This document shows, piece after piece, positions 36,365-57,308 of a DNA stretch of 64,000 nucleotides. The notes below the pieces were generated by a model. That model made no database searches, was not told where the DNA came from, and was given only the letters and a program-made list of their open reading frames with translations. A program made the translations under genes and the position numbers. Source of the DNA: Mycolicibacterium mengxianglii (GTDB lineage: Bacteria; Actinomycetota; Actinomycetes; Mycobacteriales; Mycobacteriaceae); assembly GCF_015710575.1 (NCBI RefSeq), contig NZ_CP065373.1, forward strand, positions 5,580,001 through 5,644,000, in the 5' to 3' direction. Positions within the stretch are counted from its first letter, which is position 1. The number at the start of each line of letters is the position of its first letter.

Positions 36365-36372
36365 CGAATCTC

Positions 36373-40981: not shown

Positions 40982-42013
40982 GTGGCTGCCGAGATGTTCT
41001 ACGACGACGACGCCGAGCTGTCGCTGATCCAGCAGAAGCGGGTAGCGGTCATCGGTTATGGCAGCCAAGGGCATGCCCACGCACTGTCGCTACGGGACAG
41101 TGGTGTCGATGTACGGGTGGGTCTCCAGCCCGGTTCGAAGAGCCGCGAGAAGGCCGAGAATGAAGGTCTGCGCGTCGCCACCCCCGCCCAAGCCGCGGCA
41201 GAGGCTGACCTGATAGTCATCCTCGCCCCGGATCAACATCAGCGCACGCTCTACGCCGAGGAGATCGCCCCGGCGTTGTCTGCCGGAGACAGTCTGGTCT
41301 TCAGCCACGGCTTCAACATTCGATACGGGTACATCACGCCGCCGAGAGATGTCGATGTATTCATGGTTGCGCCCAAAGGCCCCGGCCACTTGGTGCGACG
41401 CGAGTTCGTCGATGGACGAGGCGTGCCGGTGCTTGTCGCCGTCGAGAAGGACTCCTCGGGAGGGGCCTGGCCCCTTGCGCTTTCGTACGCCAAGGCAATC
41501 GGCGGTCTCCGCGCCGGCGGTATCAAGACCACATTCGCCGAGGAGACCGAAACCGATCTGTTCGGGGAGCAGTCGGTGCTCTGCGGTGGTGCGTCCCAGT
41601 TGATCATGTATGGCTTCGAGACGTTGGTAGAGGCCGGGTACCAACCTGAAGTAGCGTATTTCGAGTGCTTACACGAGCTGAAACTGATCGTCGACCTCAT
41701 GTACGAGGGCGGTATCGCCAAACAGCGCTGGTCGTGTTCGGACACCGCCGAATTCGGTGATTACGTATCAGGCCCTCGGGTCATCACTCCCGACGTGAAG
41801 GAAAACATGAAGGCGGTGCTCGCAGACATCATCGACGGATCGTTCGCCAAGCGGTTCATCGATGATCAGGATGCCGACGCTGCGGAGTTCCGGGAGCTGC
41901 GCGAGAAGGGCGAGCAACACCCCATCGAGGCCACCGGCCGCGACCTCCGCCGGCTGATGGGCTGGATCCAGCAGCAGGACGTCGACTACCAGGGCAGTGC
42001 CGCACGTGTCTGA
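40982..42013 (+). CDS. ilvC: ketol-acid reductoisomerase paralogue
   Basis: A class I ketol-acid reductoisomerase of ~343 residues (from GTG 40982; ATG 40952 would add ten residues). Motifs are intact: [48 protein letters not shown], the Mg ligands in [15 protein letters not shown], and [19 protein letters not shown]. The segment that normally reads MRYSISDTAE reads [10 protein letters not shown], a pocket change. The normal enzyme isomerises and reduces acetolactate for valine synthesis. No other ilv gene is nearby; the gene is instead coupled (TGATG) to a duplicated small protein inside the mutase locus, so a specialised role is likely. Confidence 0.88.
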
Positions 42014-42510
42014 TGATGCCTGACAGTCGACGGACATTGGCTGAGCTGCCCCCCAAGAGTTCAGCGGTGGCCTGGAAGCTGGTCGTGGCTGTCGAAGGCC
42101 CCTGGGTCGGCGAGATCTACCGCACCCGGCCCGGCCGCGACCGCCACCAATTCACCAACATGGAAAGCTTCTGCGTTGCGCTGCTGTCGGTGACGGGATG
42201 GACCCTGGACGTATGCTCGCCGGCGGCAGCTGCCGGATCCGCTGCGACAGCGGGCGGCGATGACGGTGCCCGCGCGGGTAATCGCCGTCGGGCAAGTGAC
42301 ACCATCTCGGCGCGAGGAAAATTCATCGTTGCCGCCGATGAACCCTGGGGCGGCGAGATGTACCGGACACGTCCTGGTTTGGGCCGCTTTCATTTCACGA
42401 GTTTCGAACAGATGCTTCGCTCGGTAGTGGGAATCACCGGCTGGCCGCTCGAGAGCAGCGCCCGGCGCGAAGATGTAGCTCCCGGAGCGGGTTTCAGCCG
42501 GCCTGCCTGA
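42013..42510 (+). CDS. internally duplicated small protein of unknown function
   Basis: A 165-residue protein made of two ~45-residue repeats: WKLVVAVEGPWVGEIYRTRP...FTNMESFCVALLSVTGW (residues ~21-64) and KFIVAADEPWGGEMYRTRP...FTSFEQMLRSVVGITGW (residues ~103-146), joined by an Ala/Gly/Arg linker. The shared pattern is K-[FL]-V-A-x-E-P-W-x-G-E-[IM]-Y-R-T-R-P...F-T-x-x-E. I do not recognise the family. It overlaps the ilvC stop (TGATG) and converges with a GntR gene by 17 bases, so it is probably co-translated with the reductoisomerase and may serve it or sense its substrate. Confidence 0.75.
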   Translation: MMPDSRRTLAELPPKSSAVAWKLVVAVEGPWVGEIYRTRPGRDRHQFTNMESFCVALLSVTGWTLDVCSPAAAAGSAATAGGDDGARAGNRRRASDTISARGKFIVAADEPWGGEMYRTRPGLGRFHFTSFEQMLRSVVGITGWPLESSARREDVAPGAGFSRPA

Positions 42511-43535: not shown

Positions 43536-44282
43536 TCAGCCGGCCCATTTCAAATCATTGAAGCCGACAGCCCGGTAGAAGCCCAGGATGTGGCTTTCGG
43601 TGAGTTCGGCGGCCTTGCTCTCCTCGCCTGCCGCGATCGCGTCGACGATGGCCTGATGTTCTTCGGTCAGGCTCTTCATCGTGGCGACAGGATCCTCGAG
43701 GCCGGAGAATGCGGTCACCATGGCCAGCCGCAACGCTTCGCGCAGCGCTGCCATCAGGACCGCTGCCAGCCCATTGCCGGACGCGCGCACGATCCGGACG
43801 TGAAACGCAGAGTCCAGATCGTTGTAGGTGGCCGTGGTGTGGACACCGCGCATGTCCTCAACCAGAGATCGAAGCTCGGCGATGTCGTCTTCGGTGGCGG
43901 TCGTGGCGGCTTTGCGTGCCGCCAATTTCTCGATGAGCAACCGAACTTCTACGAGGTCGTCCTGGGTGAACGATGCCAACTGCAGATGGATCCGCAGCAC
44001 CATCGCCATCCCCGCGATGCTGTCCTTGACGATCATCGACCCCGAGGTGGGGCCGGAGCCGGTGCCGGCCTCGACGACCCCGATCGCCTCGAGGATCCGT
44101 AAGGCCTCCCGGACCGCACCCCGACTGACCCCCAGCGCTTCGGCGAATTGCCGCTCAGGAGGAAGCCGGTCACCGGCCTTGAGTGTCCCGGAGATCAGCC
44201 GATTCTCGATCTCGGCCACCACCTGCTCATGCGTACGCATACGCGGCAACGGCTTCCAGTCGAACTGGCTTTCCTCGGACAC
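43536..44282 (-). CDS. FadR-type GntR regulator (paralogue 2)
   Basis: A ~248-residue FadR/FCD regulator almost identical in its DNA-binding half to paralogue 1 (shared RLPPERQFAEALGVSR and EALRILEAIGVVEAG segments), with FCD residues LDSAFHVRIVRASGN and ESHILGFYRA. GTG 44282 follows a GAGGTGG site; GTG 44333 is an upstream alternative. Two TGGT/ACCA palindromic half-site pairs lie 38-67 bases upstream, so autoregulation is likely. It sits directly downstream of the mutase large-subunit gene on the same strand. Confidence 0.88.
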   Translation of the reverse strand: MSEESQFDWKPLPRMRTHEQVVAEIENRLISGTLKAGDRLPPERQFAEALGVSRGAVREALRILEAIGVVEAGTGSGPTSGSMIVKDSIAGMAMVLRIHLQLASFTQDDLVEVRLLIEKLAARKAATTATEDDIAELRSLVEDMRGVHTTATYNDLDSAFHVRIVRASGNGLAAVLMAALREALRLAMVTAFSGLEDPVATMKSLTEEHQAIVDAIAAGEESKAAELTESHILGFYRAVGFNDLKWAG

Positions 44283-44319
44283 GTCGCCACCTCTTCTTCT
44301 CCGAGATCCTTGGGATCCG

Positions 44320-44349
44320 ATGGTACCGACCACTGCGTGGTTTGACCTG
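44320..44349. promoter_or_regulatory. tandem FadR-type operator half-sites upstream of GntR paralogue 2 (site C)
   Basis: Alternating half-sites read ATGGT-accg-ACCAC-tgc-GTGGT-ttg-ACCTG. The arrangement resembles sites A and E, where inward and outward pairs are also separated by three or four bases. It lies between the mutase large-subunit stop and the regulator start. Confidence 0.55.
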
Positions 44350-44375: not shown

Positions 44376-46103
44376 TCAGAACACCGGTGTCTCCTGATAG
44401 CTACCGAAGACTCCGCGCAGCGCACCGGTGATCTCACCCATGGACAGGTGCGCACGCACTGCCTCTATGGTCGCCGGCATGAGGTTGGCCTTCTCGTCGC
44501 GTGCCACCGCAAGGAGGTTGTCCAGCGCGGCCTGCGCGCGAACGGGATCGCGCTCCTCGCGCGTCTTCTTGAGTCGAGCGATCTGGCGGGCCTCGGACTC
44601 CGGATCCAGCTTGTGGATCTCGATCTTCTGATCTTCCCCGGAGTCGACGTACTTGTTGACGCCGATCACCGGACGGTCACCGCTGGCCTTGCGCTTTGCA
44701 TAGTCGTAGGCGCTGTCGGAGATCTCCTTCTGGAAGAAGCCTTGTTCGATGGCGGGAACGACGCCGCCCATGGCCTCGACCTTGTCCATGTACTCCTGGA
44801 TGCCCTTTTCGATCTCGTCGGTGAGGGCCTCCACGTAGTACGAGCCGCCGAGCGGGTCGATCACGTTGGGGACATTGGTCTCGTCGGCGATGATCTGCTG
44901 CGTACGCAGTGCCAACTTCATCGCCATCTCACTGGGAATCGTGTAGGCCTCGTCCAGACCGTTGGTGTGGATGGACTGCGCACCACCGAGTACGGCGGAC
45001 AGCGCCTGCAGCGCGGTTCGGACGATGTTCACCATCGGCTGGGGCTTGGTGAGCGTCGCCGCGGCGGTCTGAGCATGGAAGCGCAGCCGCATCGAATTCG
45101 CCTTCTTGGCCCCGAAATGCTCCTTCATCATCTTCGCGTAGTAGCGGCGAACGGCCCGGAACTTGGCGACCTCTTCGAAGAGGTCCGCCTGCGAGACGAA
45201 GAAGAACGACAGCCGCGAGGCGAAGGTATCGACGTCGTAACCGGCGGCAACGACATCCTCGACGTAAGCCTTGGTGATCGCCATCGTGAAAGCGACCTCC
45301 TGCAGTGCGTTACCGCCCGCTTCGCTGATGTGGTAGCCACTGATGTTCACCGGGTTGTAGCGGGCCATGTGCTCGGCGCCGTAGGCGATGCAGTCCCGGA
45401 CGATGCGCATACTGGGACGCACCGGGAAGACCCATTCCTTTTGCGCGACATACTCTTTGAGAATGTCGTTCTGGATGGTCCCGGACAGCTTGTTGAGGTC
45501 CATTCCGCGGTCTTCGGCGACGGCGACATACATCGCGAGCAGGATCCATGCCGACGGGTTGATGGTCATCGACACGGAGATGTTCTCCAGGTCGATGCCG
45601 TCGAACAAGGCCGCCATGTCGGGCAGGACGTCGATAGCCACCCCTTCACGACCGACCTCGCCGAGGCTCATCTCGTCATCGCTGTCGAGGCCCATGAGCG
45701 TGGGCATGTCGAAGTCGACCGACAGGCCGGTCTGGCCCTGGGCAATGAGGTACTGGAACCGCTTGTTGGTCTCTTCCGCCTGACCGAAACCGGCGATCTG
45801 CCGCATGGTCCACTTACGTCCGCGGTACATCGTCGGGTACGGACCACGGGTGTAGGGGAACTGCCCTGGGAGACCGATCTCGTCGTAGTTGTCGGGCAGA
45901 TCTTGCGGGCCATATACGCGTTTGACGGGCATTCCGGCCCCGGTCAGGTAGCTTTCCCTGGCCTCGGGTGCGCGGGCGATGAAATCGGCCAGCTCGTGGC
46001 CCTCCCACGACTCGAGTTCAGCCTGGGCGCGTTTGCGCAACGCGTCGGTGGCCAGGCGCAGTTCCTCCGGGGTCGACGTGGCATCTGTGTTCTGCGCGGT
46101 CAT
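44376..46103 (-). CDS. hcmA: 2-hydroxyisobutyryl-CoA mutase large subunit
   Basis: A 575-residue B12-dependent acyl-CoA mutase large subunit without the B12-binding domain, about the same size as HcmA. Substrate-site residues identify the subtype: RQIAGFG has Ile103 where methylmalonyl-CoA mutase has Tyr89; LSVDFDMP has Asp130, equivalent to HcmA Asp117; and VAQKEW has Gln221 where methylmalonyl-CoA mutase has Arg207. His258 in SGYH is conserved. These three residues are the HCM signature, distinct from isobutyryl-CoA mutase (Phe) and methylmalonyl-CoA mutase. Predicted reaction: 2-hydroxyisobutyryl-CoA to 3-hydroxybutyryl-CoA. ATG 46103 overlaps the MeaB-like gene (ATGA) and follows AGAGGAA. 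Confidence 0.9.
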   Translation of the reverse strand: MTAQNTDATSTPEELRLATDALRKRAQAELESWEGHELADFIARAPEARESYLTGAGMPVKRVYGPQDLPDNYDEIGLPGQFPYTRGPYPTMYRGRKWTMRQIAGFGQAEETNKRFQYLIAQGQTGLSVDFDMPTLMGLDSDDEMSLGEVGREGVAIDVLPDMAALFDGIDLENISVSMTINPSAWILLAMYVAVAEDRGMDLNKLSGTIQNDILKEYVAQKEWVFPVRPSMRIVRDCIAYGAEHMARYNPVNISGYHISEAGGNALQEVAFTMAITKAYVEDVVAAGYDVDTFASRLSFFFVSQADLFEEVAKFRAVRRYYAKMMKEHFGAKKANSMRLRFHAQTAAATLTKPQPMVNIVRTALQALSAVLGGAQSIHTNGLDEAYTIPSEMAMKLALRTQQIIADETNVPNVIDPLGGSYYVEALTDEIEKGIQEYMDKVEAMGGVVPAIEQGFFQKEISDSAYDYAKRKASGDRPVIGVNKYVDSGEDQKIEIHKLDPESEARQIARLKKTREERDPVRAQAALDNLLAVARDEKANLMPATIEAVRAHLSMGEITGALRGVFGSYQETPVF

Positions 46104-47089
46104 CGTGTTCCTCTTCCATTGATGTCGGTCGGGTCTACGGCCATGGCTGTCAACAGCCGGGCAGCTGCTTGGCGTGGTTCTTCCTCGCGGGCGATGAGTG
46201 CCTCGACGGCAGCATCGAAGGCCGGGGCGCCGGTTCGGAGCCGACCGGCCATGAGAGCTTCTGCCGCCCAACGGATCCGAGTCGCCGCGTTACGCCGTTC
46301 GATGTCCTTCAGGGCGCCGTGCTCCCCTATCCAGGTGCGGTGCTTGGCGGTTTCATCGAGCAGTTCCGCGACACCGTCGCCGGTAGCAGCCGTGACCTTC
46401 TGGATCGGCACGTCCCATTTGCTTGCCAGATTATGAGCAAGCCGAAGGGACTCGCGCAGTTGTTTGACGGTGAGATCGGCGCCCGGCCGGTCAGCCTTGT
46501 TGACGACGTGGATATCGGCGATCTCGATCAGCCCGGCCTTGATGGCCTGGATGTCGTCGCCGAGGCCGGGCACGCTGACCACCAGCACCGTGTGCGCGAC
46601 GCTGATCACGTCGACCTCCGCTTGGCCGACGCCGACAGTCTCGAGGATGACGACATCGAATCCCGCGGCATCGAGCAGGACGATCCCGTCGAGCACAGCG
46701 CGGGACAGGCCACCGGTGGCGCCCCGCGAGGCCATCGAACGGATGTAGACGTCCTTTTCGCCTGCCAGCTCGGTCATTCGGATGCGGTCACCAAGAATCG
46801 CACCCCCGGAGTAGGTACTGGAGGGATCGACCGCCAGGACCGCCACCCGCATGCCGCGCGTGAGGTACTCCTGTGCCATCCGCAGCACCAGGGTGCTCTT
46901 CCCGCTGCCTGCGGGACCGGTGATACCGACGACATGCGCGCGACCGCTGTCTTTCCAGATTTCCGCCAGCAGCTCCGTTGCCGCGTCCGACCGGCTCTCG
47001 ACAAGGGTGAGCCCCCTTGCCAGCGACACTTGCGACCCGGCGCGGATCCGGTCGGCCATCGCCGCGACGGAGGTGGTGGTGGTGCTCAT
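46100..47089 (-). CDS. meaH: MeaB/ArgK-type G-protein chaperone of the mutase
   Basis: A 329-residue GTPase of the MeaB/ArgK family: Walker A GITGPAGSGKST, the switch region VDPSSTYSGGAILGDRIRM, LETVGVGQAEVDV (G3), and VNKADRPGADLTV (G4). MeaB-type proteins load and protect adenosylcobalamin on mutases; the homologue in the characterised HCM loci is called MeaH. Overlaps of four bases on both sides bind it to the mutase operon. The DNA sequence does not distinguish between cofactor loading and reactivation. Confidence 0.9.
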   Translation of the reverse strand: MSTTTTSVAAMADRIRAGSQVSLARGLTLVESRSDAATELLAEIWKDSGRAHVVGITGPAGSGKSTLVLRMAQEYLTRGMRVAVLAVDPSSTYSGGAILGDRIRMTELAGEKDVYIRSMASRGATGGLSRAVLDGIVLLDAAGFDVVILETVGVGQAEVDVISVAHTVLVVSVPGLGDDIQAIKAGLIEIADIHVVNKADRPGADLTVKQLRESLRLAHNLASKWDVPIQKVTAATGDGVAELLDETAKHRTWIGEHGALKDIERRNAATRIRWAAEALMAGRLRTGAPAFDAAVEALIAREEEPRQAAARLLTAMAVDPTDINGRGTR

Positions 47090-48519
47090 GATGCTGTCCC
47101 GCGATCGAGGGAATCGAAGAGGTTGCGGTCGTCGATGACGCGGCGGGCCTTGAAGTCGGTGCGTTCGAAGGTGGCCGGCGCCACCGTCGTGACCTTGGCC
47201 CCCACACCGAGTACGTGCCGGAGGTCCTCGCCCACCCGCTTGATGAAAAGCTCTTCTGTCACAGTGGTTTTCGCCAAATCGAACTCGACCTGGACCAGCA
47301 GCTCATCCATCGCCGCCTCACGCGAGATGATGATGCGGTGTTCGCCGCCGTACCCTTCGGCGCTCATCACCACCTCATCGATGGCGTTCGGATGGACGTT
47401 TTCACCGCGAATCTGGAACATGTCATCGATCCGGCCGTAGATGCCCTTGGGCAGGAACGGGTACGTGCGCCCGCGGGATGCGTCGGGCGCTTCCCAACTC
47501 GTCAGATCGTTGGAGAGCAGGCGGATCATCGGCTGGGAGGTGCGCTCCAGCGTGGTGTAGACCGGTGTGCCTTCGCTACCGAACGGGACACGCTTCATCG
47601 TCGCCGGGTCGCACACTTCGGTGTAGACGAGGTCCTGCCACGCGAAGACGCCGGGTTCGTTCAAGCTGGCGCCCAGATGCATCCAGGGCGCCACCTCGCC
47701 CATGCTCCCGGAGTCATATACCTCGACGTCGAAGGCGTCGATGATGCGCTGGCGAATCGCCGGCACGCTGGCACCGGGTTCGCCCGAGAAGAACATCTTG
47801 CGTAGACCCAGGCCGCGGGGATCGATACCGTTCCCGGTTGCCACCTCCGCCAGGCGGAGTGCGTACGACGGAGTGCCGTAGAAGACCGTCGCCGACATCT
47901 GGCGCATCCACTGGAGCGTTCGCAGGCTCTGGCCTGAGAACCCGGCGCCGAACGGAAAGACCGCAGCGCCAAGACGTTCCGCGCCGCTGTAGGCGCCCCA
48001 GGAGCCCCAGTACTGCGTCAGTGGAGAACCGATCAGGACGACATCCTCTGGCCGGATGCCCATCCCCCACATCACCCGCGCGTGGGCATTGGCGACCGCC
48101 ACCCAGTCGTTCTGGCTGATGCCGAATGCGGTGGGACGGCCGGTGGTCCCGGAGGTGCCCTTGATGTGGGTGACCTCAACAGGGTCGATGCACAGATAGC
48201 TTCCGTAAGGCTCGTTTTCGGCCTGGTCGGTGCGCAGCTCCTCCTTCTTGATCACCGGTACCGTCTCGAAGATTTCGAGTGAGGTGATGTCCCCGGGTTC
48301 CAGACCAGCCTGCGACCACTTGTGCCGGTAGAACGGCGCGTGTTCCCACGCGTAGCTCATCAGTTGCTGAATGCGCTCCAAGATCTTCTCGTCGCGCTGT
48401 TCGGGATCCATCGTCTCCCGCACCGGAAACCAGTGCTCCTGGTCTGCCGGTGGCCGGTAGTCGGCGTCGTAGCGCGGTGGCCAGCTCCACGACTCCATTT
48501 CCGATTGCGTCGTGGACAT
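47086..48519 (-). CDS. hcl: PaaK-like acyl-CoA ligase, probably 2-hydroxyisobutyrate-CoA ligase
   Basis: A 477-residue AMP-forming ligase of the phenylacetate-CoA ligase type. The AMP motif is THIKGTSGTTGRPTAFG; other motifs are FFSGEPGASVPAIRQ, YDSGSMGEVAPWM, GRIDDMFQIRGENVHPNAIDEV, and the C-terminal TDFKARRVIDDR with the conserved lysine. In the known HCM loci a ligase of this type activates 2-hydroxyisobutyrate. Its position between the two mutase genes and the MeaB-like gene supports that role. The ATG shares a base with the small-subunit stop (TGATG). Confidence 0.85.
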   Translation of the reverse strand: MSTTQSEMESWSWPPRYDADYRPPADQEHWFPVRETMDPEQRDEKILERIQQLMSYAWEHAPFYRHKWSQAGLEPGDITSLEIFETVPVIKKEELRTDQAENEPYGSYLCIDPVEVTHIKGTSGTTGRPTAFGISQNDWVAVANAHARVMWGMGIRPEDVVLIGSPLTQYWGSWGAYSGAERLGAAVFPFGAGFSGQSLRTLQWMRQMSATVFYGTPSYALRLAEVATGNGIDPRGLGLRKMFFSGEPGASVPAIRQRIIDAFDVEVYDSGSMGEVAPWMHLGASLNEPGVFAWQDLVYTEVCDPATMKRVPFGSEGTPVYTTLERTSQPMIRLLSNDLTSWEAPDASRGRTYPFLPKGIYGRIDDMFQIRGENVHPNAIDEVVMSAEGYGGEHRIIISREAAMDELLVQVEFDLAKTTVTEELFIKRVGEDLRHVLGVGAKVTTVAPATFERTDFKARRVIDDRNLFDSLDRGTAS

Positions 48520-48941
48520 CAAGAGTTCGCTTCCACCGGAGCGGCCGCCTTGATGGTTTCCACGATCTTCTCCGGGGTGGTGTCCTGACCGAGAACCGCG
48601 GCGACACCCATCTTCTGCAGCTCGATCTCGTCCTCATCGGGCATCACGCCGCCGGCAACGATGCTGAAACGCGGCCGCTCGTCCATCGCACCGAGGATCT
48701 CGAAGATCTTGGTGAAGATCGGCATATGCGCACCCGAGAGCAGGCTGACGCCCAGCACGTCGACGTCTTCTTGTGTCGCAGCCTCGATGACCTGGGCCGG
48801 GCTGCGATGGAGGCCGGTGTAGATCACCTCCATACCGGCGTCTCGAAGGGTGCGGGCCACGACCTTTACTCCGCGGTCGTGTCCGTCGAGTCCGATCTTC
48901 GCGAGCATCACGCGGATGGGCAGCGCCGACGGTTCATTCAT
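48519..48941 (-). CDS. hcmB: 2-hydroxyisobutyryl-CoA mutase small (B12-binding) subunit
   Basis: A 140-residue cobalamin-binding subunit: KIGLDGHDRGVKVVA contains the D-x-H-x-x-G motif whose His21 replaces the dimethylbenzimidazole ligand, followed by GVSLLSGAHM and IVAGGVMPDEDEI. The length matches HcmB (about 136 residues). It is the first gene of the mutase operon. Start ATG 48941 is 31 bases downstream of the palindrome at 48972-48986, shared with the divergent hydrolase gene. Confidence 0.92.
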   Translation of the reverse strand: MNEPSALPIRVMLAKIGLDGHDRGVKVVARTLRDAGMEVIYTGLHRSPAQVIEAATQEDVDVLGVSLLSGAHMPIFTKIFEILGAMDERPRFSIVAGGVMPDEDEIELQKMGVAAVLGQDTTPEKIVETIKAAAPVEANS

Positions 48942-50138: not shown

Positions 50139-51317
50139 TCAGCGTGCCGGAGAGGCGCCCGAATGCAACGGTGTTCTGGCTGCGGCACCGGTTCCACTGA
50201 GGGTCTCGAACGCTGCGACAGATCCGATGACGGTGATGGCCGGCGGTGCAATCCCGGATTCGATGACGGTCTGCGCGATGTCAACCAGCGTGGAACGCAC
50301 GATGCGCTGGTGCGGCATGGTGCCGTTTTCGATTGTCACAGCGACGGTTTCGGGCGCCAACCCGTGCCGCAGGAGCGCATCGGTGATGGCAGGAAGAGTG
50401 GTGACGGCCATCAGCAACACCAAGGTGGTGCCCGCATGCGCCAAGGCTTCGTAGTCAATGGTGGAGGCCGGATCATCCGGTGCCACGTGACCGGATATCA
50501 CCGTCACACCCTGGGTGAGACCGCGGTGCGTGATCGGAATGCCTGCGATGGCCGGAACAGCCAAGGCTGAAGAGACGCCGGGAATCACAGCGACATCGAC
50601 GCCCGCCTCCTGGCACGCCAACAGTTCCTCCCCACCGCGGCCGAACAGGAAACTGTCGCCACCTTTGAACCGGACGACGTTTTTCCCTTCGGCGGCGTGG
50701 TGGATGAGAATCCGGTTGATTTCGGATTGCGGTGTCGCTTTTCCGAACGGAATCTTGCCGACGTCGATGACCTCCACCCCCGCGTCGAGGTCGGCAAGCA
50801 CCGATACCGGCGCGAGCCGGTCCGTCACAACTACATCGGCAGCACGCAGCGCCTCCAAGCCGGCGACCGTCAGCATCCCGGGATCACCCGGGCCACCGCC
50901 AACCAGCGTCACCCGACCCGTTGTGGGCGCGGGGCGCTCGGAGGCCGGCTCTCTCAGGCACCAGATGCGCTGCTCCTCGCACAGAGCGGCGATGTCGTGA
51001 TCCGACTCCATCCGACCGGTCGCCGCGACCGCAAGCCAGGTGTCCTTCAGATCACTGCTGTCGAACTCGCGCCGGTGCCAGGTCAGTAACCCACGGGCGG
51101 CGAGATCCGCGATGGTCGCGCCGGCTTCACTGCTCACGACCGTCACGTCGGCGCCGGACTGGGTCAGGGCAGCCACATGGCGCAACGCGGGCCCGCCACC
51201 GCCGAACACCACCGCGGAACGTCCCACCATGTCCAGGGTCGGGCGGAAGCCGCTTTGCCTCTCAGGAGTCAGAGATCCGGCGGTACCGCTCACCGTGCCG
51301 CTCAATGCAGATTGCAT
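50139..51317 (-). CDS. cobA: fused precorrin-2 dehydrogenase-like / uroporphyrinogen-III C-methyltransferase (CobA/CysG type)
   Basis: A 392-residue protein. Residues ~30-140 are a Rossmann domain like the SirC/CysG N-terminus (AVVFGGGGPALRHVAALTQSGADVTVV), with the C-terminal CysG-B part reduced. Residues ~150-392 are a uroporphyrinogen-III methyltransferase (VTLVGGGPGDPGMLTVAGLEAL, VVRFKGGDSFLFGRGGEE, IPGVSSALAVPAIAGIPITHRGL). It supplies precorrin-2 for cobalamin and siroheme. ATG 51317 has GGAGG five bases upstream. It is divergent from cobG across operator E. The C-terminus is Ala/Pro-rich. Confidence 0.9.
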   Translation of the reverse strand: MQSALSGTVSGTAGSLTPERQSGFRPTLDMVGRSAVVFGGGGPALRHVAALTQSGADVTVVSSEAGATIADLAARGLLTWHRREFDSSDLKDTWLAVAATGRMESDHDIAALCEEQRIWCLREPASERPAPTTGRVTLVGGGPGDPGMLTVAGLEALRAADVVVTDRLAPVSVLADLDAGVEVIDVGKIPFGKATPQSEINRILIHHAAEGKNVVRFKGGDSFLFGRGGEELLACQEAGVDVAVIPGVSSALAVPAIAGIPITHRGLTQGVTVISGHVAPDDPASTIDYEALAHAGTTLVLLMAVTTLPAITDALLRHGLAPETVAVTIENGTMPHQRIVRSTLVDIAQTVIESGIAPPAITVIGSVAAFETLSGTGAAARTPLHSGASPAR

Positions 51318-51389
51318 GAAATCCTCCGTGGGCTGCCGATGCATCGGCCCCGTATGAACGTGGGGCTCGCGGTCACGGGTTGACCACAG

Positions 51390-51447: not shown

Positions 51448-51531
51448 ATGACCGAGGCCATGAAACCTCCCTCCCAGTCATGTGCATTTCAGCACGCAGA
51501 AGGTTGCGCGAACGTTGCGGACTCTGCGTAA
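51448..51531 (+). CDS. 27-residue ORF translationally coupled to cobG
   Basis: An ATG with a strong GGAAGGA site six bases upstream opens a 27-codon frame (MTEAMKPPSQSCAFQHAEGC...) whose TAA overlaps the cobG ATG (TAATG). cobG itself has no ribosome-binding site of its own, so ribosomes probably reach it by terminating on this ORF. Two cysteines and a histidine are present; the peptide is otherwise unlike any known family. It could be a leader peptide or a small functional protein. Confidence 0.5.
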   Translation: MTEAMKPPSQSCAFQHAEGCANVADSA

Positions 51532-52445
51532 TGGCGTTTGACCTCGACAAATCGCCGGCAGCGGGTCCGCGCACACGCGCGGATCTCTGCCCCGGCGTGC
51601 ATCGGCCGTGGCGCGCGGACGACGGGCTGCTCGTCCGCTTGCGCCTGGTCGGAGGGCGTCTGCCGGTCAGTGCGTTGCGCCGGCTGCTGGATGTCAGTGA
51701 GCGCTTCTCGGATGGCTGTATTCATCTGACCGCCCGAGCCAACTTGCAGGTCCGAGGCTTACCGGGGTCGGGTGCACAGTTGACGCCCGCAGCCTTGGCC
51801 GCCCTCGAGTCGACGGGGCTACTGCCATCGGAGACACACGAGTTGGTGCGCAACATCCTGGTTTCTCCCCAGACCGGATTCGCCGGCGGCCGGGCGGATA
51901 TGCATCCGGTCGCCCAGTGTCTCGACGCTGCGCTGTGCGCAGACAACCAGCTGGGACGGCTGCCCGGCCGCTTCTTGTTCACGCTCGACGACGGCCGCGG
52001 TGACCTGCTCGAGCGGCTTACCGGGGCTGGGCGGCGAGGCAGTGACCTGGGCCTGGTGGCGCTCAACAACCGCGAAGTCCAACTGCGTATCGGGGACCAC
52101 TGGGGCGAGGTCGTGCGCCTCGACGAGGCGGCATTGCACCTCGCCGGGCTCGCGACCGCATTCTTGAGTGCCCGTGGGTCCGGCGCCGAAGCGCCCTGGC
52201 ATCTTCGCGAGCTTCCCGAGCCATTGCGGACGCCGGCGGATCCCGACCCGCGACTGCCGTCTCCGACCCAGCCGCTCCCCTACGGCGCCGTTCCAGGCGG
52301 CACACACCTGCAGGTGCCCGACGGTGTGCTGACACCGGCCCAGGCCGGCCCGCTCCTGGAGCGCGTCACCGACCGTATCGCTGATGTCGTCGTGACCCCT
52401 TGGCACGGCATTTTCGTCCCACTAGCCGCAGAGGACTCTCAATGA
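51531..52445 (+). CDS. cobG: CobG-like precorrin-3B synthase lacking its C-terminal Fe-S region
   Basis: A 304-residue protein with the two nitrite/sulfite-reductase ferredoxin-like half domains of CobG (ADLCPGVHRPWRADDGLLVRLRLVGG, FSDGCIHLTARANLQVRGLPG, LPGRFLFTLDDGRGD, VVTPWHGIFVP). CobG proteins usually continue for 60 or more residues with a cysteine-rich C-x-G-x-P-x-C segment that holds the 4Fe-4S cluster and siroheme. Here the protein stops directly after VTPWHGIFVPLAAEDSQ, with a four-base overlap into cobH. The oxygen-dependent ring-contraction step may therefore be altered or supplied by another protein. Confidence 0.82.
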   Translation: MAFDLDKSPAAGPRTRADLCPGVHRPWRADDGLLVRLRLVGGRLPVSALRRLLDVSERFSDGCIHLTARANLQVRGLPGSGAQLTPAALAALESTGLLPSETHELVRNILVSPQTGFAGGRADMHPVAQCLDAALCADNQLGRLPGRFLFTLDDGRGDLLERLTGAGRRGSDLGLVALNNREVQLRIGDHWGEVVRLDEAALHLAGLATAFLSARGSGAEAPWHLRELPEPLRTPADPDPRLPSPTQPLPYGAVPGGTHLQVPDGVLTPAQAGPLLERVTDRIADVVVTPWHGIFVPLAAEDSQ

Positions 52446-53122
52446 CCAGCCCCTTGTCGGACCGGATCGCGCGGCCCGCCAGACACTACGACTACATCGA
52501 CGACGGGCCGGCGATCTACGTCGACTCCTTTGCGACCATCCGCCGGGAAGCCGATCTGTCGGCCGTCCCGCCCGAGGCCGAAAAGTTGGCCGTACGGATG
52601 ATTCACGGCACGGGCCAGCCGAAGTTGATCGAGGACTTGGTCATTCATCCAGATCTCGTGCGGGCCAGCCGAGCCGCGCTGCAGGCAGGTGCCCCCATTC
52701 TGTGCGACTCGCAGATGGTGGCCACCGGGGTCACTGCGAGTCGATTACCTGCCGGCAACGCCGTGCACTGCTTTCTCCACGACGACCGCGTCCCCGCGCT
52801 GGCCAAGTCCTGGAGCACGACGCGCACTGCCGCTGCCGTGTCGTTGTGGTTGCCGCTGATGGAAGGCGCCGTCGTCGCGATCGGCAACGCGCCGACGGCC
52901 CTGTTTCACCTGCTCGAGATGATTCTCGACGGCGCGCCGCGGCCCGCGGCGATTGTGGGGTGTCCGGTCGGGTTCATCGGGGCAGCCGAGTCCAAGGATG
53001 CCCTCATCGCCTTTTCCCACGACCACGGTATCGACATCCCCTATGTGACGATCCGCGGTCGACTCGGGGGTTCGGCCATGACGTCGTCGGCACTCAATGC
53101 ACTTGCCTCGGAGACAGAATGA
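52442..53122 (+). CDS. cobH: precorrin-8X methylmutase CobH
   Basis: A 226-residue CobH/CbiC. Visible are DGPAIYVDSFATIRREADL, the catalytic His in AVRMIHGTGQP, ILCDSQMVATGV, TRTAAAVSLWLPLMEGAVVAIGNAPTALFHLLEM and GCPVGFIGAAESKDAL. It moves the C11 methyl to C12, forming hydrogenobyrinate. The ATG overlaps the cobG stop (ATGA), and its own stop overlaps cobIJ. Confidence 0.95.
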   Translation: MTSPLSDRIARPARHYDYIDDGPAIYVDSFATIRREADLSAVPPEAEKLAVRMIHGTGQPKLIEDLVIHPDLVRASRAALQAGAPILCDSQMVATGVTASRLPAGNAVHCFLHDDRVPALAKSWSTTRTAAAVSLWLPLMEGAVVAIGNAPTALFHLLEMILDGAPRPAAIVGCPVGFIGAAESKDALIAFSHDHGIDIPYVTIRGRLGGSAMTSSALNALASETE

Positions 53123-54645
53123 CAACCGCTGCCAATGCCGGGCGGTTCTACGGCGTGGGTCTGGGACCCGGCGACCCAGAGCTGATCACGCTCAAGGCTG
53201 CCCGAGTCATCGCTGAGGCCGACGTCATCGCCTACCACGCCGGGGTCAACAAACAGTCCTACGCGCGCAGCATCGCGGCGGATCTCATTCGCGACGGTGT
53301 AATCGAAGAAGAACTGCGCTACCCCGTGACCACGGGGAGCACCGATCACCCCGGCGGATACGCCGGGGCGCTGGCCGACTTCTACGAAGATTCCGCCGCC
53401 CGGTTGGCCGTCCACCTCGCCGCCGGGCGCACCGTGGCGCTGCTGGCCGAAGGCGACCCGCTGTTCTATGGCTCGTACATGTACATGCACGACCGGCTGA
53501 GCGCCGACTACGTCACCGAGGTCATTCCCGGGCTGCCCGCGTTCGTCGCTGCGACCGCAGCCACCGCCTCCCCTCTGGTGCGGCAGACCGACGTCCTCAC
53601 CGTGCTGCCCGGGACCCTCCCGGAAGCCGAGCTCGCCCGCCGCCTGGCCGACACCGACGGTGCCATCATCATGAAGCTCGGTCGTACGTTCCCGACGGTG
53701 CGACGTGCCCTGGCTGCCGCAGGCCGGCTTGGGCACGCGTTCTACGTCGAGCGGGCCAGCCACCCGGAGCAACGGTGGATGCCGGTCGAAGAAGTCGACG
53801 AAACCTCTGTGCCGTACCTGTCCCTGATCGTCGTCAACGGCGACTCACTCAACGGGCAACGCTCCCGGATAGCCGGGGAAGTGGTCGCCCCGACCAGCAG
53901 GCCGGTGGCGCAGGCCGCCGAACTACTTGTCGTCGGCCTCGGCCCCGGGCCGCAGAACTGGCTCACCCCGGAAGCCACCGAGGCCCTGGCCGAGGTCGAT
54001 CACGTGGTCGGCTACGGCCCCTACGTCGCGCGGGTACCGCAACGTGAAGGACTTCAGCGCCACGCCTCCGGCAACACTGTTGAAGTCGACCGGGCCCGCT
54101 TCGCCCTCGATCTCGCGCTGCGAGGTGAGAAAGTGGCCGTGGTGTCCGGGGGCGACGCCGGTGTGTTCGGCATGGCCGCAGCGGTTTTCGAAGCTGCTGA
54201 GGATGAGCAGTTCGCCGGTGTACCGGTGCGGGTGCTGCCTGCCGTCTCCGCCGTCCAGGCCGTCGCGGCCCGCGCCGGGGCGCCGATCGGCGCCGACTTC
54301 GCGGTCGTGAGCCTTTCTGATCGGCTCAAACCGTGGACAACCATCGAGACCCGGTTGCGCGCGATCGCCGAGGCTGATCTGGTGCTCGCCATCTACAACC
54401 CGGCTTCCCGATCCCGCCCCGATCAGATTGCGGTCGCCCGAAAAGTGCTGCTGGAACATCGCCGCGCTGACACCGTCGTCGTCATCGGACGCGACGTGGG
54501 GCGGGCGGAGGAGTCGCTGACGGTGACCACGCTCGGCGATCTGGACACCGACTCCATCGACATGAAATGCCTTGTGCTGGTGGGGGCGTCCGCCACCCGC
54601 GTGACACCGTCCGGTCAGGTGTGGACACCGCGGTGGGTCCAATGA
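53119..54645 (+). CDS. cobIJ: bifunctional CobI-CobJ methyltransferase
   Basis: A 508-residue fusion of two S-adenosylmethionine methyltransferases. The N-terminal ~240 residues are CobI, precorrin-2 C20-methyltransferase (GVGLGPGDPELITLKAARV, LAEGDPLFYGSYMYMHDRL, VIPGLPAFVAATAATASPL). Residues ~265-508 are CobJ, precorrin-3B C17-methyltransferase (VVGLGPGPQNWLTPEA, VVSGGDAGVFGMAA, ASRSRPDQIAVARK). The same fusion is known from mycobacteria. ATG 53119 overlaps the cobH stop. Confidence 0.95.
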   Translation: MTTAANAGRFYGVGLGPGDPELITLKAARVIAEADVIAYHAGVNKQSYARSIAADLIRDGVIEEELRYPVTTGSTDHPGGYAGALADFYEDSAARLAVHLAAGRTVALLAEGDPLFYGSYMYMHDRLSADYVTEVIPGLPAFVAATAATASPLVRQTDVLTVLPGTLPEAELARRLADTDGAIIMKLGRTFPTVRRALAAAGRLGHAFYVERASHPEQRWMPVEEVDETSVPYLSLIVVNGDSLNGQRSRIAGEVVAPTSRPVAQAAELLVVGLGPGPQNWLTPEATEALAEVDHVVGYGPYVARVPQREGLQRHASGNTVEVDRARFALDLALRGEKVAVVSGGDAGVFGMAAAVFEAAEDEQFAGVPVRVLPAVSAVQAVAARAGAPIGADFAVVSLSDRLKPWTTIETRLRAIAEADLVLAIYNPASRSRPDQIAVARKVLLEHRRADTVVVIGRDVGRAEESLTVTTLGDLDTDSIDMKCLVLVGASATRVTPSGQVWTPRWVQ

Positions 54646-55433
54646 GCCAGCCTGGACACGCCGTGGAATTCGTCGGCGCCGGACCGGGTGCCGCGGAACT
54701 GCTCACCCTGCGCGCGGCGCGATTACTGGGCGAGGCCGACGTGGTGCTGTACCCAGGCACCTACCTCGATCCCGAATTTCTCGAGATGTGCTCTCCTGCA
54801 GCTGATGTCATCGACACTCAAGATCTCAATCTCGACATCATCGTGGCCCGCATCGTCGCGGCTCAGCAGGCCGGCATGCGGGTGGTGCGGCTGGTTTCCG
54901 GGGATCCCACGATCTACAGCGCAGTGTTCGAGCAGACCCGTCGGCTCGACGCCGCCGGCGTGCCCTGGTCGGTGACACCGGGTGTCCCGGCCTACGCGGC
55001 CGCCGCCGCGCGAATCGGCCATGAACTCACCGTGCCTCTGGTGGCCCAGTCAGTGGTCCTCACCCGGACGCAGCAGCGTTCAACCGTGATGCCGCAGTCG
55101 GAGTCGCTGGCTGCATTCGCGGCCACCCAGGCGACGCTGGTGCTGCATCTGGCCATCACTCGCACCCGCGAACTCATGGCCGAGCTCTCGCCGTCCTATG
55201 GACCGGACTGCCCCGTCGTTGTCGTGCACCGCGCCTCGCAGCCACAAGAACTCGTACTTCGTGGCACCGTCGCCGACATCGCCGACCAGGTTGAAGCCGC
55301 GGGCCTACGTCAGGCCGCGGTGATCCTCGTGGGCCGCGCACTGGCCGACCGTCCGGATCCGCAAGCCGGGGACAGTTACCTCTACGACCCCCAGCGGGAA
55401 CGTACCAACCAACGGCCGGGTGGCTTGCGGTGA
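54642..55433 (+). CDS. cobM: precorrin-4 C11-methyltransferase CobM
   Basis: A 263-residue SAM-dependent corrin methyltransferase: EFVGAGPGAAELLTLRAARLL, LVSGDPTIYSAVFEQ, VTPGVPAYAAAAARIGHELTVP and LTRTQQRSTVMPQSE are CobM/CbiF features. It methylates C11 of precorrin-4. ATG 54642 overlaps the cobIJ stop and its stop overlaps bluB (GTGA). Confidence 0.94.
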   Translation: MSQPGHAVEFVGAGPGAAELLTLRAARLLGEADVVLYPGTYLDPEFLEMCSPAADVIDTQDLNLDIIVARIVAAQQAGMRVVRLVSGDPTIYSAVFEQTRRLDAAGVPWSVTPGVPAYAAAAARIGHELTVPLVAQSVVLTRTQQRSTVMPQSESLAAFAATQATLVLHLAITRTRELMAELSPSYGPDCPVVVVHRASQPQELVLRGTVADIADQVEAAGLRQAAVILVGRALADRPDPQAGDSYLYDPQRERTNQRPGGLR

Positions 55434-56098
55434 GTGCTCCCGCATCAACCACCGCCGCCGAGAGCCTCTACGACCTGATCTACCGCCGTCGCGACACCCG
55501 CCGCGAATTCACCGGTGATCACGTCGCTGATGCGATCCTCGAACGCGTGCTGTCTGCCGCCCATGCGGCGCCGTCGGTCGGAATGTCGCAGCCATGGGAT
55601 TTCATCCTGGTGCGTAACCCGCAGACACTCATGGCATTCCGCGACCATGTGGCCTCGGAACGTGAGGTGTTTGCCTCCGCCCTTTCCGGGGAGCGGGCAG
55701 AGACGTTCGCGCGGATCAAGGTGGAGGGGATCTGCGAGTCCCGGCTCGGCGTCGTCGTCGGCTATGACCCCACCCGCGGTGGTGCGAATGTCCTTGGCCG
55801 CCATGCCATTGACGACGCCGGACTCTATTCGGTCGTCTGCGCGGTCCAGAACCTCTGGCTCGCCGCGACCGCGGAAGGGCTCGGCGTCGGTTGGGTGTCG
55901 TTCTATCGGGAGGAATTTCTGCGATCACTGGTGGGGATGCCCGAGCACGTACGCCCCGTCGCGTGGCTGTGTGTCGGCCATGTCGCCGGCCTTCCTGACA
56001 CACCAGATCTCGAGCACTACGGCTGGCGCCGGCGTTCCCCGTTGCACCGCGTGGTGCACGAGGAGCGCTACTGTCCGCAGGACTTCAGTCCCGAGTGA
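55430..56098 (+). CDS. bluB: 5,6-dimethylbenzimidazole synthase BluB
   Basis: A 222-residue flavin-dependent nitroreductase-fold enzyme that cleaves FMNH2 to form the lower ligand dimethylbenzimidazole. Characteristic motifs are YRRRDTRREF, SAAHAAPSVGMSQPWDFILV, RIKVEGICESRLGVVVGYDP, YSVVCAVQNLWLAATAEGLGVGWVSF and HVRPVAWLCVGHV. GTG 55430 overlaps the cobM stop. It converges with cobL by 14 bases. The presence of BluB means the cofactor is made with dimethylbenzimidazole under aerobic conditions. Confidence 0.95.
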   Translation: MSAPASTTAAESLYDLIYRRRDTRREFTGDHVADAILERVLSAAHAAPSVGMSQPWDFILVRNPQTLMAFRDHVASEREVFASALSGERAETFARIKVEGICESRLGVVVGYDPTRGGANVLGRHAIDDAGLYSVVCAVQNLWLAATAEGLGVGWVSFYREEFLRSLVGMPEHVRPVAWLCVGHVAGLPDTPDLEHYGWRRRSPLHRVVHEERYCPQDFSPE

Positions 56099-57308
56099 AT
56101 GCCCCCCGAGTGAATGCCCATTGCGTGACAGCACGACCCGGTGTCCAGCCGGTGAAGGACCCGACCGGGCCCGCGCGTTCGACGTGGATCCGGGTGAGCT
56201 CGCCGCCGTGCTCGCCGTAGGCACGGCCGAGGAGGGCCTCGGTTTCCACCGTCACCCCATGCACCACGAGCCTGCCGCCGGGCCCCAGTGCCTGCAGGCA
56301 TGCGTTCAGCACGCCGGGTCGAGTCGCACCGCCGCCGATGAAAATCGCTTCTGGCGCAGCCAATCCCGTCAACGCCTCTGGGGCGTGCCCGGTGACCACC
56401 TCCAGGGCGGGCACCCCGAGCGCGCGGGCGTTGCGGGCAATCCGGGCCGCCCGGGTCGGATCGGCTTCTACGGCCACCGTCCGGCATGTCGGGTGGGCGC
56501 GCATCCACTCGATGCCCACCGAACCGGCGCCTGCACCGACGTCCCACAGCAGCTGACCGGGTGCGGGCATCAGCCGGGACAGCGCCGACGCGCGCAGATC
56601 CCGCTTGGTGAGCTGCCCGTCATTGTCGAACACTTCGTCGGGAAGCCCCGACGCCCACGAGTTGTCCACGGGTCCGATCAACTCCAGTGCCACGATGTTC
56701 AGTCGCGGCGCGGGACCTGCGAATGTGGCCACCGTGGTGTCCACCCGTGTCTCGGAATCACTTCCGAGATCACCCAGCACCACCATTCGGCTCGATCCGT
56801 AACCCCGGCGTGCCAGCAGACCGGCCAGCTCATCGGGAGTTCGTTCGTCAGACGACAACACCAGGATGCGACGTCCCGGAGCCAGCTCACGCAGCACAGC
56901 ATGCACGTCGCGACCGACCACGCTGACGACGACAGTCGACTCAGCGGACCAGCCGAGCCGAGCGCGGGCCAAGGCGGGTGAGGACACATGAGGCACCACT
57001 GTGACCCGGTCTGCACCGAGCACGCCGATCAGCGTCGTCCCGATTCCACTGACCATCGGGTCACCGGAGGCAAGCGCGACGACACGTCTGCCGGCCAGAC
57101 CTTCCAATACCGCAGGCAGGGCACCTCGAAGCGGAGTCGGCCACGTCAGACGCCGCTGGCCGACCACATCGGGGAGCAACTGGAGCTGACGGGGCGCGCC
57201 GAGGACCACATCAGCTGCGGTGACCCGCGTCCGCGCAGCCTCGGAGAGTCCGGACCAACCGTCCGCCCCGATACCCATCACAGTGAGACGCACGTCAGGG
57301 ACAGGCAC
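56085..57308 (-). CDS. cobL: precorrin-6Y C5,15-methyltransferase (decarboxylating) CobL
   Basis: A 407-residue bifunctional enzyme. The N-terminal half is CbiE-like (LTVMGIGADGWSGLSEAARTRVTAADVVLGAPRQLQLL, VALASGDPMVSGIGTTL). The C-terminal half is CbiT-like, with a SAM site (LLWDVGAGAGSVGIEWMRAHP, AEAIFIGGGATRPGVLNACL cut short here: EAIFIGGGATRPGVLNACL). It methylates C5 and C15 and removes the C12 acetate carboxyl. The start is GTG 57308. It is on the opposite strand from the other cob genes, divergent from the riboswitch-controlled operon. The C-terminal FTRGAFTRD shows a 12-base tandem duplication. Confidence 0.93.
   Translation of the reverse strand: MPVPDVRLTVMGIGADGWSGLSEAARTRVTAADVVLGAPRQLQLLPDVVGQRRLTWPTPLRGALPAVLEGLAGRRVVALASGDPMVSGIGTTLIGVLGADRVTVVPHVSSPALARARLGWSAESTVVVSVVGRDVHAVLRELAPGRRILVLSSDERTPDELAGLLARRGYGSSRMVVLGDLGSDSETRVDTTVATFAGPAPRLNIVALELIGPVDNSWASGLPDEVFDNDGQLTKRDLRASALSRLMPAPGQLLWDVGAGAGSVGIEWMRAHPTCRTVAVEADPTRAARIARNARALGVPALEVVTGHAPEALTGLAAPEAIFIGGGATRPGVLNACLQALGPGGRLVVHGVTVETEALLGRAYGEHGGELTRIHVERAGPVGSFTGWTPGRAVTQWAFTRGAFTRD

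What the first reader, a model, noticed from the sequence alone, without database searches (positions are those of the whole stretch)
44376..48941. 2-hydroxyisobutyryl-CoA mutase operon with the full diagnostic residue set
Seen: a four-gene overlapping operon (B12 small subunit, PaaK-like ligase, MeaB-like GTPase, mutase large subunit). Large subunit carries Ile103, Asp130 and Gln221. Known: the characterised 2-hydroxyisobutyryl-CoA mutase has Ile90, Asp117 and Gln208 at these positions; methylmalonyl-CoA mutase has Tyr89 and Arg207 and isobutyryl-CoA mutase has Phe and Gln. The spacing (27 and 118 residues) matches exactly. Inference: this organism can rearrange 2-hydroxyisobutyryl-CoA (for example from tert-butanol/MTBE breakdown or cyanohydrin-derived acids) to 3-hydroxybutyryl-CoA. 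HCM loci in a Mycobacteriaceae-type genome next to B12 genes would be notable.
Basis: partly seen in the sequence, partly recalled or inferred. Interest (0 to 1): 0.88.

Follow-up and report, generated by a model that had tools for sequence, protein, structure and literature searches.

The report
Mycobacterial 2-hydroxyisobutyrate catabolic gene cluster
This mycobacterial chromosome carries a near-complete vitamin B12-dependent gene set for eating 2-hydroxyisobutyrate, a breakdown product of isobutylene and petrol additives; it is a good new example of a system already known in other bacteria, including a close relative.

Summary
Four overlapping minus-strand genes (44376-48941) encode HcmB, a 2-HIBA-CoA ligase, a MeaB-type GTPase and HcmA with Ile103/Asp130/Gln221. 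Gene order equals that of Methylibium PM1 and Xanthobacter Py2. Nearby lie a 3-hydroxybutyryl-CoA dehydrogenase, an MHS-type transporter and many B12-synthesis genes. No close lyase relative was found. It is not new in kind: Mycolicibacterium ELW1 'ibc cluster 2' (AEM 2026) has the same gene kinds on a plasmid, induced on isobutylene. HcmA was found in 8 of 396 sampled genomes of the genus. A side lead is a second ilvC, shared with two other mycobacterial hcm clusters and distinct from housekeeping ilvC. Every enzyme activity is inferred, not shown.

The parts
44376..46103 (-). hcmA, 2-hydroxyisobutyryl-CoA mutase large subunit (575 aa; I103, D130, Q221)
46100..47089 (-). meaH, MeaB-type GTPase / mutase chaperone (329 aa)
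   Evidence: TIGR00750 308.9 bits, cut-off 240.75
47086..48519 (-). hcl, 2-hydroxyisobutyrate-CoA ligase, PaaK-like (477 aa)
   Evidence: best PDB match 6HDW 618.3 bits; next, phenylacetate-CoA ligases, 188 bits
48519..48941 (-). hcmB, B12-binding small subunit (140 aa; LDGHDRG stretch)
   Evidence: best PDB match 4R3U_C 159.6 bits
38486..39343 (-). 3-hydroxybutyryl-CoA dehydrogenase (3HCDH family), next step after the mutase
   Evidence: NF005875 454.5 bits, cut-off 319; PF02737 + PF00725
39396..40805 (-). MHS-type metabolite:H+ symporter, candidate 2-HIBA importer (start codon unsure)
   Evidence: TIGR00883 383.4 bits, below its cut-off of 443.45; relatives (73-80%) near hcm in L005, L006, L007
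40952..42013 (+). second ilvC (ketol-acid reductoisomerase), paralog of the housekeeping copy at 3586.8 kb
   Evidence: NF004017 540.5 bits; tree
42013..42510 (+). 165-aa ORF beside ilvC, two similar halves, no Pfam match at 1e-5; homologs beside ilvC in L006 and L007
42494..43315 (-). GntR-type regulator 1
   Evidence: subfamily matches below cut-offs
43536..44333 (-). GntR-type regulator 2, directly downstream of hcmA
   Evidence: subfamily matches below cut-offs; same place in L005-L008
49075..50124 (+). 3-hydroxyisobutyryl-CoA hydrolase-family protein, divergent from hcmB
   Evidence: NF004127 333.5 bits, cut-off 274
50139..51344 (-). cobA/cysG-type uroporphyrinogen-III methyltransferase
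   Evidence: TIGR01469 265.8 bits, cut-off 185
51480..52445 (+). cobG-like (TIGR02435 111 bits, below its cut-off of 234.8)
52400..53122 (+). cobH, precorrin-8X methylmutase
   Evidence: NF006136 312 bits, cut-off 276
53116..54645 (+). cobIJ; its CobJ domain is the only one over the family cut-off in the genome
54567..55433 (+). cobM-like (TIGR01465 256 bits, just under its cut-off of 259.65)
55430..56098 (+). bluB, lower-ligand (DMB) synthase
   Evidence: TIGR02476 216.6 bits, cut-off 150
56085..57308 (-). cobL (CbiE + CbiT domains)
   Evidence: TIGR02467 140 and TIGR02469 99.3 bits, both over cut-off
57533..59563 (+). ChlI/ChlD-like chelatase subunit (AAA + VWA)
59563..60177 (+). cobO, cob(I)yrinate adenosyltransferase (makes the adenosyl form that the mutase needs)
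   Evidence: TIGR00708 236.9 bits, cut-off 167.75
60171..62702 (+). CobB/CobQ + CobT-like fused protein
   Evidence: PF07685, PF01656, PF02277 (on the longer ORF 59829-62702; start)
62703..63749 (+). cobD/cbiB
   Evidence: PF03186 296.1 bits

Best explanation
This is a chromosomal 2-hydroxyisobutyrate (2-HIBA) catabolic cluster. The ligase Hcl makes 2-hydroxyisobutyryl-CoA. HcmA/HcmB, charged with adenosylcobalamin and guarded by the GTPase MeaH, moves the CoA-thioester carbon by a radical 1,2-shift to give 3-hydroxybutyryl-CoA, probably the (S)-isomer because Asp130 is kept. The 3HCDH-type dehydrogenase at 38486-39343 then gives acetoacetyl-CoA for thiolysis. The neighbouring cob genes supply the cofactor, and an mpdBC-like pair 28-32 kb away supplies 2-HIBA from 2-methylpropane-1,2-diol. 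Shown: sequences, gene order, family placement, co-location. Inferred: every activity, substrate and the stereochemistry.
For: Solved-structure matches: HcmA to 4R3U_A 798.7 bits, human MCM 440, fused ICM 265; HcmB to 4R3U_C 159.6; Hcl to 6HDW 618.3, phenylacetate-CoA ligase 188. Residues I/D/Q. Tree of 68 rows: window and 4R3U in one clade of 38 IDQ and 2 LDQ rows, 100/99; the 21 YAR rows outside. Same four-gene order on the PM1 and Py2 plasmids and in L005, L006, L007, L008, L010 and others. Dehydrogenase and B12 genes nearby. GMC dehydrogenase 89% and aldehyde dehydrogenase 84% identical to the pair inside the M. agri hcm cluster, at genome 5656.6-5660.5 kb on the same contig; 13 of the 120 listed homologs of the GMC protein carry the name 2-methyl-1,2-propanediol dehydrogenase from a source. 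Among 396 genomes of the genus 8 have HcmA and 5 a close (67% or more) MpdB; 3 have both, hypergeometric p = 5e-5, kinship ignored. Same gene kinds, induced on isobutylene, in Mycolicibacterium ELW1 (PMC13188929: passages, sections 6 and 8).
Against: No activity was measured. The loci behind the tree were found with peptide patterns that include DFDMPTLM and EYVAQKEW, so the D and Q columns are partly selected for. 5 of the 8 HcmA genomes lack a close MpdB and 2 of the 5 close-MpdB genomes lack HcmA; 8 of 13 source names seen are not proof, and most other named homologs of the GMC protein are only called GMC oxidoreductase or choline dehydrogenase-like. In 80 relative loci the dehydrogenase is near hcm in 3, cobA in 1, cobO in 1, and cobH, cobIJ and cobN in none over my thresholds (flanks up to 10 kb, often cut by contig ends), so the B12 neighbourhood is not a general feature. 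No first step to the diol was identified. No thiolase was among the 36 window ORFs scanned; ORFs left of 24.3 kb were not scanned.
Confidence: 0.92

Rival explanations
1. The mutase and ligase act mainly on a different branched acid (for example pivalate or another 2-hydroxy-2-methyl acid), with 2-HIBA a side substrate.
For: I recall that wild-type HCM has low activity on pivalyl- and isovaleryl-CoA. PMC7176365 (passage) says that other strains with the mutase-ligase cluster have not been associated with fuel oxygenates and suggests a natural source of 2-HIBA or a related acid.
Against: Asp130, whose counterpart I recall as binding the substrate hydroxyl, is kept; the ligase is far closer to the 2-HIBA-CoA ligase than to others of known structure; mpdBC-like genes on the same chromosome.
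Confidence: 0.06
2. It is a methylmalonyl-CoA or isobutyryl-CoA mutase misread as HCM.
For: Same Pfam family; the automatic model names say methylmalonyl-CoA mutase.
Against: Tree and residues. NF006944 (MCM) scores 581.9 against a cut-off of 876 and IcmF 329.5 against 1500, though those models also cover domains that here lie on other genes. The genome has its own MCM pair at 3053-3057 kb with a YAR large subunit.
Confidence: 0.01
3. 2-HIBA-CoA is mainly cleaved by a thiamine-dependent lyase to acetone and formyl-CoA, as in Actinomycetospora, and the mutase is minor.
For: Lyase route shown in an actinobacterium (PMC7176365, abstract and passages). A di-iron monooxygenase set beside a chaperonin gene is present. 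Lyase homologs lie near hcm in 6 of 80 relative loci, two of them mycobacterial (L006, L017).
Against: In this genome the PM1 lyase homolog finds 5 matches of 26-35% identity; the best by E-value (29%, 1.9e-48) lies 0.7 kb from the housekeeping ilvC, so is probably acetolactate synthase.
Confidence: 0.03

Closest known systems
ibc cluster 2 of Mycolicibacterium sp. ELW1 plasmid pELW1-1 (PMC13188929; passages, sections 6 and 8 read)
   Same: Ligase, two mutase subunits, auxiliary protein, 3-hydroxybutyryl-CoA dehydrogenase, FadR/GntR regulator, ilvC, MHS transporter and cobalamin genes together.
   Different: There on a 221-kb plasmid, without cobG, with cob paralogs on the chromosome, a thiolase, a thiamine-dependent lyase and mobile elements; here on a 5.96-Mb single contig with one CobJ over cut-off, a cobG-like gene in the cluster and no close lyase. 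The plasmid sequence was not held, so no sequence comparison was made.
hcm operon of Methylibium petroleiphilum PM1 (L115) / Aquincola HCM (4R3U)
   Same: hcmB-hcl-meaH-hcmA order; residues I/D/Q; GntR gene next to hcmB.
   Different: 64% HcmA identity; PM1 has a lyase homolog and a Rieske protein nearby and no ilvC or cob cluster beyond two adenosyltransferases in the 25.7 kb viewed.
Mycolicibacterium agri CCUG37673 cluster (L007)
   Same: hcm operon, GntR genes, MHS transporter, ilvC, and mpdBC-like pair plus GAF protein.
   Different: There mpdBC lies between the GntR genes and ilvC; here it lies 28-32 kb away beyond the cob genes.
lyase-HCL cluster of Actinomycetospora chiangmaiensis (PMC7176365; passages and section 5 read)
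   Same: Hcl and MpdB/MpdC-type enzymes.
   Different: Uses a thiamine-dependent lyase, no mutase.

Membership tests
2-hydroxyisobutyryl-CoA mutase (HcmAB) | HcmA with Ile90/Asp117/Gln208 equivalents | tested here: met
   I103, D130, Q221
2-hydroxyisobutyryl-CoA mutase (HcmAB) | Groups with the characterised HCM, outside MCM and ICM | tested here: met
   100/99. The ICM side rests on one long-branched FAQ row (L106), labelled by residues only, which falls next outside the HCM and VDQ rows; pivalyl-CoA mutase, IcmF and RcmA reference sequences were not in the tree
2-hydroxyisobutyryl-CoA mutase (HcmAB) | Separate B12-binding small subunit | tested here: met
   hcmB
2-hydroxyisobutyryl-CoA mutase (HcmAB) | Operon with Hcl and MeaH | tested here: met
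   gene order and overlaps; co-transcription itself not tested
2-hydroxyisobutyryl-CoA mutase (HcmAB) | Isomerises 2-hydroxyisobutyryl-CoA to (S)-3-hydroxybutyryl-CoA | not testable with these tools
   needs an enzyme assay
Methylmalonyl-CoA mutase | Tyr89 and Arg207 equivalents; place in the tree | tested here: not met
   I and Q instead; outside the YAR rows
Fused isobutyryl-CoA mutase (IcmF type) | B12 domain, GTPase and mutase domain in one chain | tested here: not met
   three separate genes; NF045497 329.5 against 1500
MpdBC diol-oxidation pair | Close to the proven MpdB/MpdC of M. austroafricanum IFP 2012 | tested here: inconclusive
   13 of 120 listed homologs bear that name and co-location; the IFP 2012 sequences themselves were not compared

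The most novel reading that the evidence does not exclude
The second ilvC in mycobacterial 2-HIBA clusters is a 2-HIBA-tolerant ketol-acid reductoisomerase. 2-HIBA resembles the 2-hydroxy-2-methyl acid part of acetolactate and could inhibit the housekeeping enzyme; the cluster copy would keep valine, leucine and isoleucine synthesis running while the acid is being eaten.
Probability: 0.15. Interest if true: 0.5.

Novelty: new member of a known kind. Interest (0 to 1): 0.36.

Why it matters
It shows that genes for the route from diol through 2-HIBA to 3-hydroxybutyryl-CoA, with B12 supply, can lie on a mycobacterial chromosome rather than on a catabolic plasmid, which helps to tell by genomics which mycobacteria would use the mutase route and which the lyase route in isobutylene, tert-butanol and fuel-ether breakdown. 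The cluster's own ilvC gives a simple testable question about product toxicity.

Tried and rejected
Rejected: MCM or ICM identity; a lyase route in this genome; a PM1-type Rieske oxygenase as the first step. Looked for and not found: the ELW1 plasmid record; a plasmid with this stretch (7 of 72,556 records matched a 12.1-kb query in near mode, none over 80% of it; own and near-identical records may be left out; in protein mode, 428 records have a mutase relative, 4 of them at 60-80% identity). A DNA comparison of 37-52 kb with 20 relatives (list cut by the tool) gave scattered short matches, mostly at ilvC, the dehydrogenase, the symporter and the mutase, and did not define island borders. G+C is slightly lower at 38-46 kb (0.62-0.64) than in most of the window (0.64-0.70), weak evidence for acquisition. 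Rows dropped: one search aligned 114 mutase rows; one YAR row was too short after trimming; the tree used 68 of 113 (30 non-IDQ and 38 of 83 IDQ; the 83 include the window and a longer reading of the same gene). The tool warned of long branches in that tree (four small-subunit rows, FAQ, human MCM). The VDQ rows (L006, L015) look like the distant Rcm type, but no Rcm reference was in the tree, so that label is a guess. A family-wide sample found HcmA only in this genome of 401, the genus sample in 8 of 396; both are drawn from larger groups, with an E limit of 1e-190 and at most three candidates scored in the genomes listed. Recalled, not from any call: the roles of Ile90 and Asp117 in the 2015 HCM structure paper (PMC4392272 and PMC3346121 are not held); (S)-specificity of the 3HCDH family; that the PM1 Rieske gene is the tert-butanol oxygenase.
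Full report
What is there. The four genes are present as described: hcmB 48941-48519, hcl 48519-47086, meaH 47089-46100, hcmA 46103-44376, all minus strand, overlapping by 1, 4 and 4 bases. HcmA has I, D and Q at 103, 130 and 221.

What it is. Against solved structures, HcmA matches the Aquincola 2-hydroxyisobutyryl-CoA mutase large subunit 4R3U_A at 798.7 bits, human MCM at 440 and fused ICM at 265. HcmB matches 4R3U_C best, Hcl matches the 2-HIBA-CoA ligase 6HDW at 618 bits against 188 for phenylacetate-CoA ligase, and MeaH passes the MeaB model TIGR00750. In a maximum-likelihood tree of 68 mutase rows the window lies in the clade that holds 4R3U (100/99), with the 21 YAR rows outside. In 114 aligned mutase rows the residue triplet was IDQ in 83, YAR in 22, VDQ in 2, LDQ in 2, FAQ in 1 and other in 4; the sampling leans toward D and Q because two of the six search peptides cover those columns. 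The genome has four family members: an MCM pair, a second YAR mutase at 1210 kb, and this one.

Surroundings. Downstream of hcmA are two GntR-type regulators, a divergent ilvC with a 165-aa ORF, an MHS-type symporter and a 3-hydroxybutyryl-CoA dehydrogenase. Upstream are a 3-hydroxyisobutyryl-CoA hydrolase-family gene and then cobA, a cobG-like gene, cobH, cobIJ, cobM-like, bluB, cobL, a chelatase subunit, cobO, cobB/Q-cobT and cobD. A CobN and another CobB/CobQ-type gene follow past the window. Only one CobJ match over the family cut-off exists in the genome; CobJ was the only B12 enzyme counted genome-wide. If the rest follow, the B12 genes beside hcm serve the whole cell (the MCM pair included), unlike in ELW1, where the plasmid genes have chromosomal paralogs. 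I did not identify cobK and did not check every B12 step. B12 genes beside hcm are unusual among relatives: of 80 loci, cobA in 1, cobO in 1, cobH, cobIJ and cobN in none (up to 10 kb each side, often less).

Source of substrate. A GMC dehydrogenase inside the hcm cluster of M. agri (L007) has an 89% identical counterpart in this genome at 5656.6-5658.3 kb, and the aldehyde dehydrogenase beside it an 84% identical one at 5659.0-5660.5 kb; the small ORF between them is kept (68%). The hcm operon is at 5624.4-5628.9 kb. Of 120 listed homologs of the GMC protein, 13 carry the name 2-methyl-1,2-propanediol dehydrogenase from a source; the others are nameless or called GMC oxidoreductase or choline dehydrogenase-like. 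HcmA was found in 8 of 396 genomes of the genus and close MpdB (67% or more) in 5, both in 3 (p = 5e-5, or 3e-4 with all 8 MpdB hits, kinship ignored); so 5 HcmA genomes have no close MpdB and 2 close-MpdB genomes have no HcmA. In ELW1 the corresponding enzymes are ibcH and ibcJ. No close relative of the PM1 Rieske protein and no close lyase was found. The one PF02332 monooxygenase set is closest by structure search to methane monooxygenase alpha chain (218 bits) and lies near a chaperonin gene, a layout reported for propane/phenol monooxygenases (PMC6849523, passages); that it is of that type is inference. How the diol or 2-HIBA arises is therefore open.

Relatives. Of 80 relative loci, hcmB, hcl and meaH homologs over my thresholds were found in 67, 65 and 64 (contig ends cut some); in the 32 loci with full flanks, in 31, 30 and 29. 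The 80 are the best of 331 confirmed. The closest HcmA is from Mycobacterium sp. AT1, an estuarine isoprene degrader (96%); the words mutase and hydroxyisobutyr do not occur in the main text of the AT1 paper.

The second ilvC. The window's IlvC groups with those of the M. agri and NAZ190054 hcm clusters (100/100) and apart from the housekeeping IlvC of this genome and seven relatives (98/95, 17 rows). It is 87% and 86% identical to the former, 62% to the genome's own other copy, and 71-76% to IlvC of five genomes of other families of the order; the join with those (90/93) is not strongly supported, so an origin outside the genus is only suggested. No ilvC was seen in the held flanks of L005, L008 or L017, also mycobacterial hcm loci; a distant one (54%) lies near hcm in a betaproteobacterial bin, L083. 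ELW1's cluster also has an ilvC, and a chromosomal keto acid reductoisomerase is among the genes up-regulated on isobutylene there. Protection of branched-chain amino-acid synthesis from 2-HIBA is my inference. A search for papers holding both 'ketol-acid reductoisomerase' and '2-hydroxyisobutyr' gave two: PMC13188929 and PMC9781318 (only its listing and abstract start seen).

Known or new. The mutase, its operon and, by induction and plasmid curing, its gene cluster's need in mycobacterial isobutylene catabolism are published (PMC7176365, abstract, passages and section 5; PMC13188929, passages and sections 6 and 8). In the held library 12 papers hold '2-hydroxyisobutyryl-CoA mutase' (listing); I looked into three of them. 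What this adds is a chromosomal version with its B12 genes, its rarity in the genus and the ilvC lead.

Noticed in passing
L006:3-7060 (Mycobacterium sp. NAZ190054): A lyase-like fragment (48% to the PM1 homolog), a second mutase large subunit with V-D-Q, an acyl-CoA ligase, an SDR and a second MeaB sit directly upstream of the hcm operon, and cobalt transporter genes (CbiQ, CbiO) lie downstream; possibly an Rcm-type pathway for the other stereoisomer in the same cluster.
   Followed up: partly
genome 1209931-1211466 (L003, L128): A third mutase type in this genome and four other mycobacteria: Y-A-R residues but its own clade between MCM and HCM/ICM, followed by a luciferase-like monooxygenase and a class III CoA-transferase; substrate unknown.
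   Followed up: partly
42013-42510: 165-aa ORF made of two similar halves (PWVGEIYRTRPG / PWGGEMYRTRPG), no Pfam match, with homologs (52% and 43%) beside ilvC in two other hcm clusters.
   Followed up: partly
34802-37179: Ascorbate-type PTS IIC and IIA-IIB genes, which I recall as uncommon in mycobacteria.
   Followed up: no
49075-50124: 3-hydroxyisobutyryl-CoA hydrolase-family gene divergent from hcmB; homologs lie near hcm in 8 of 80 relative loci, perhaps a CoA-releasing safety valve.
   Followed up: partly
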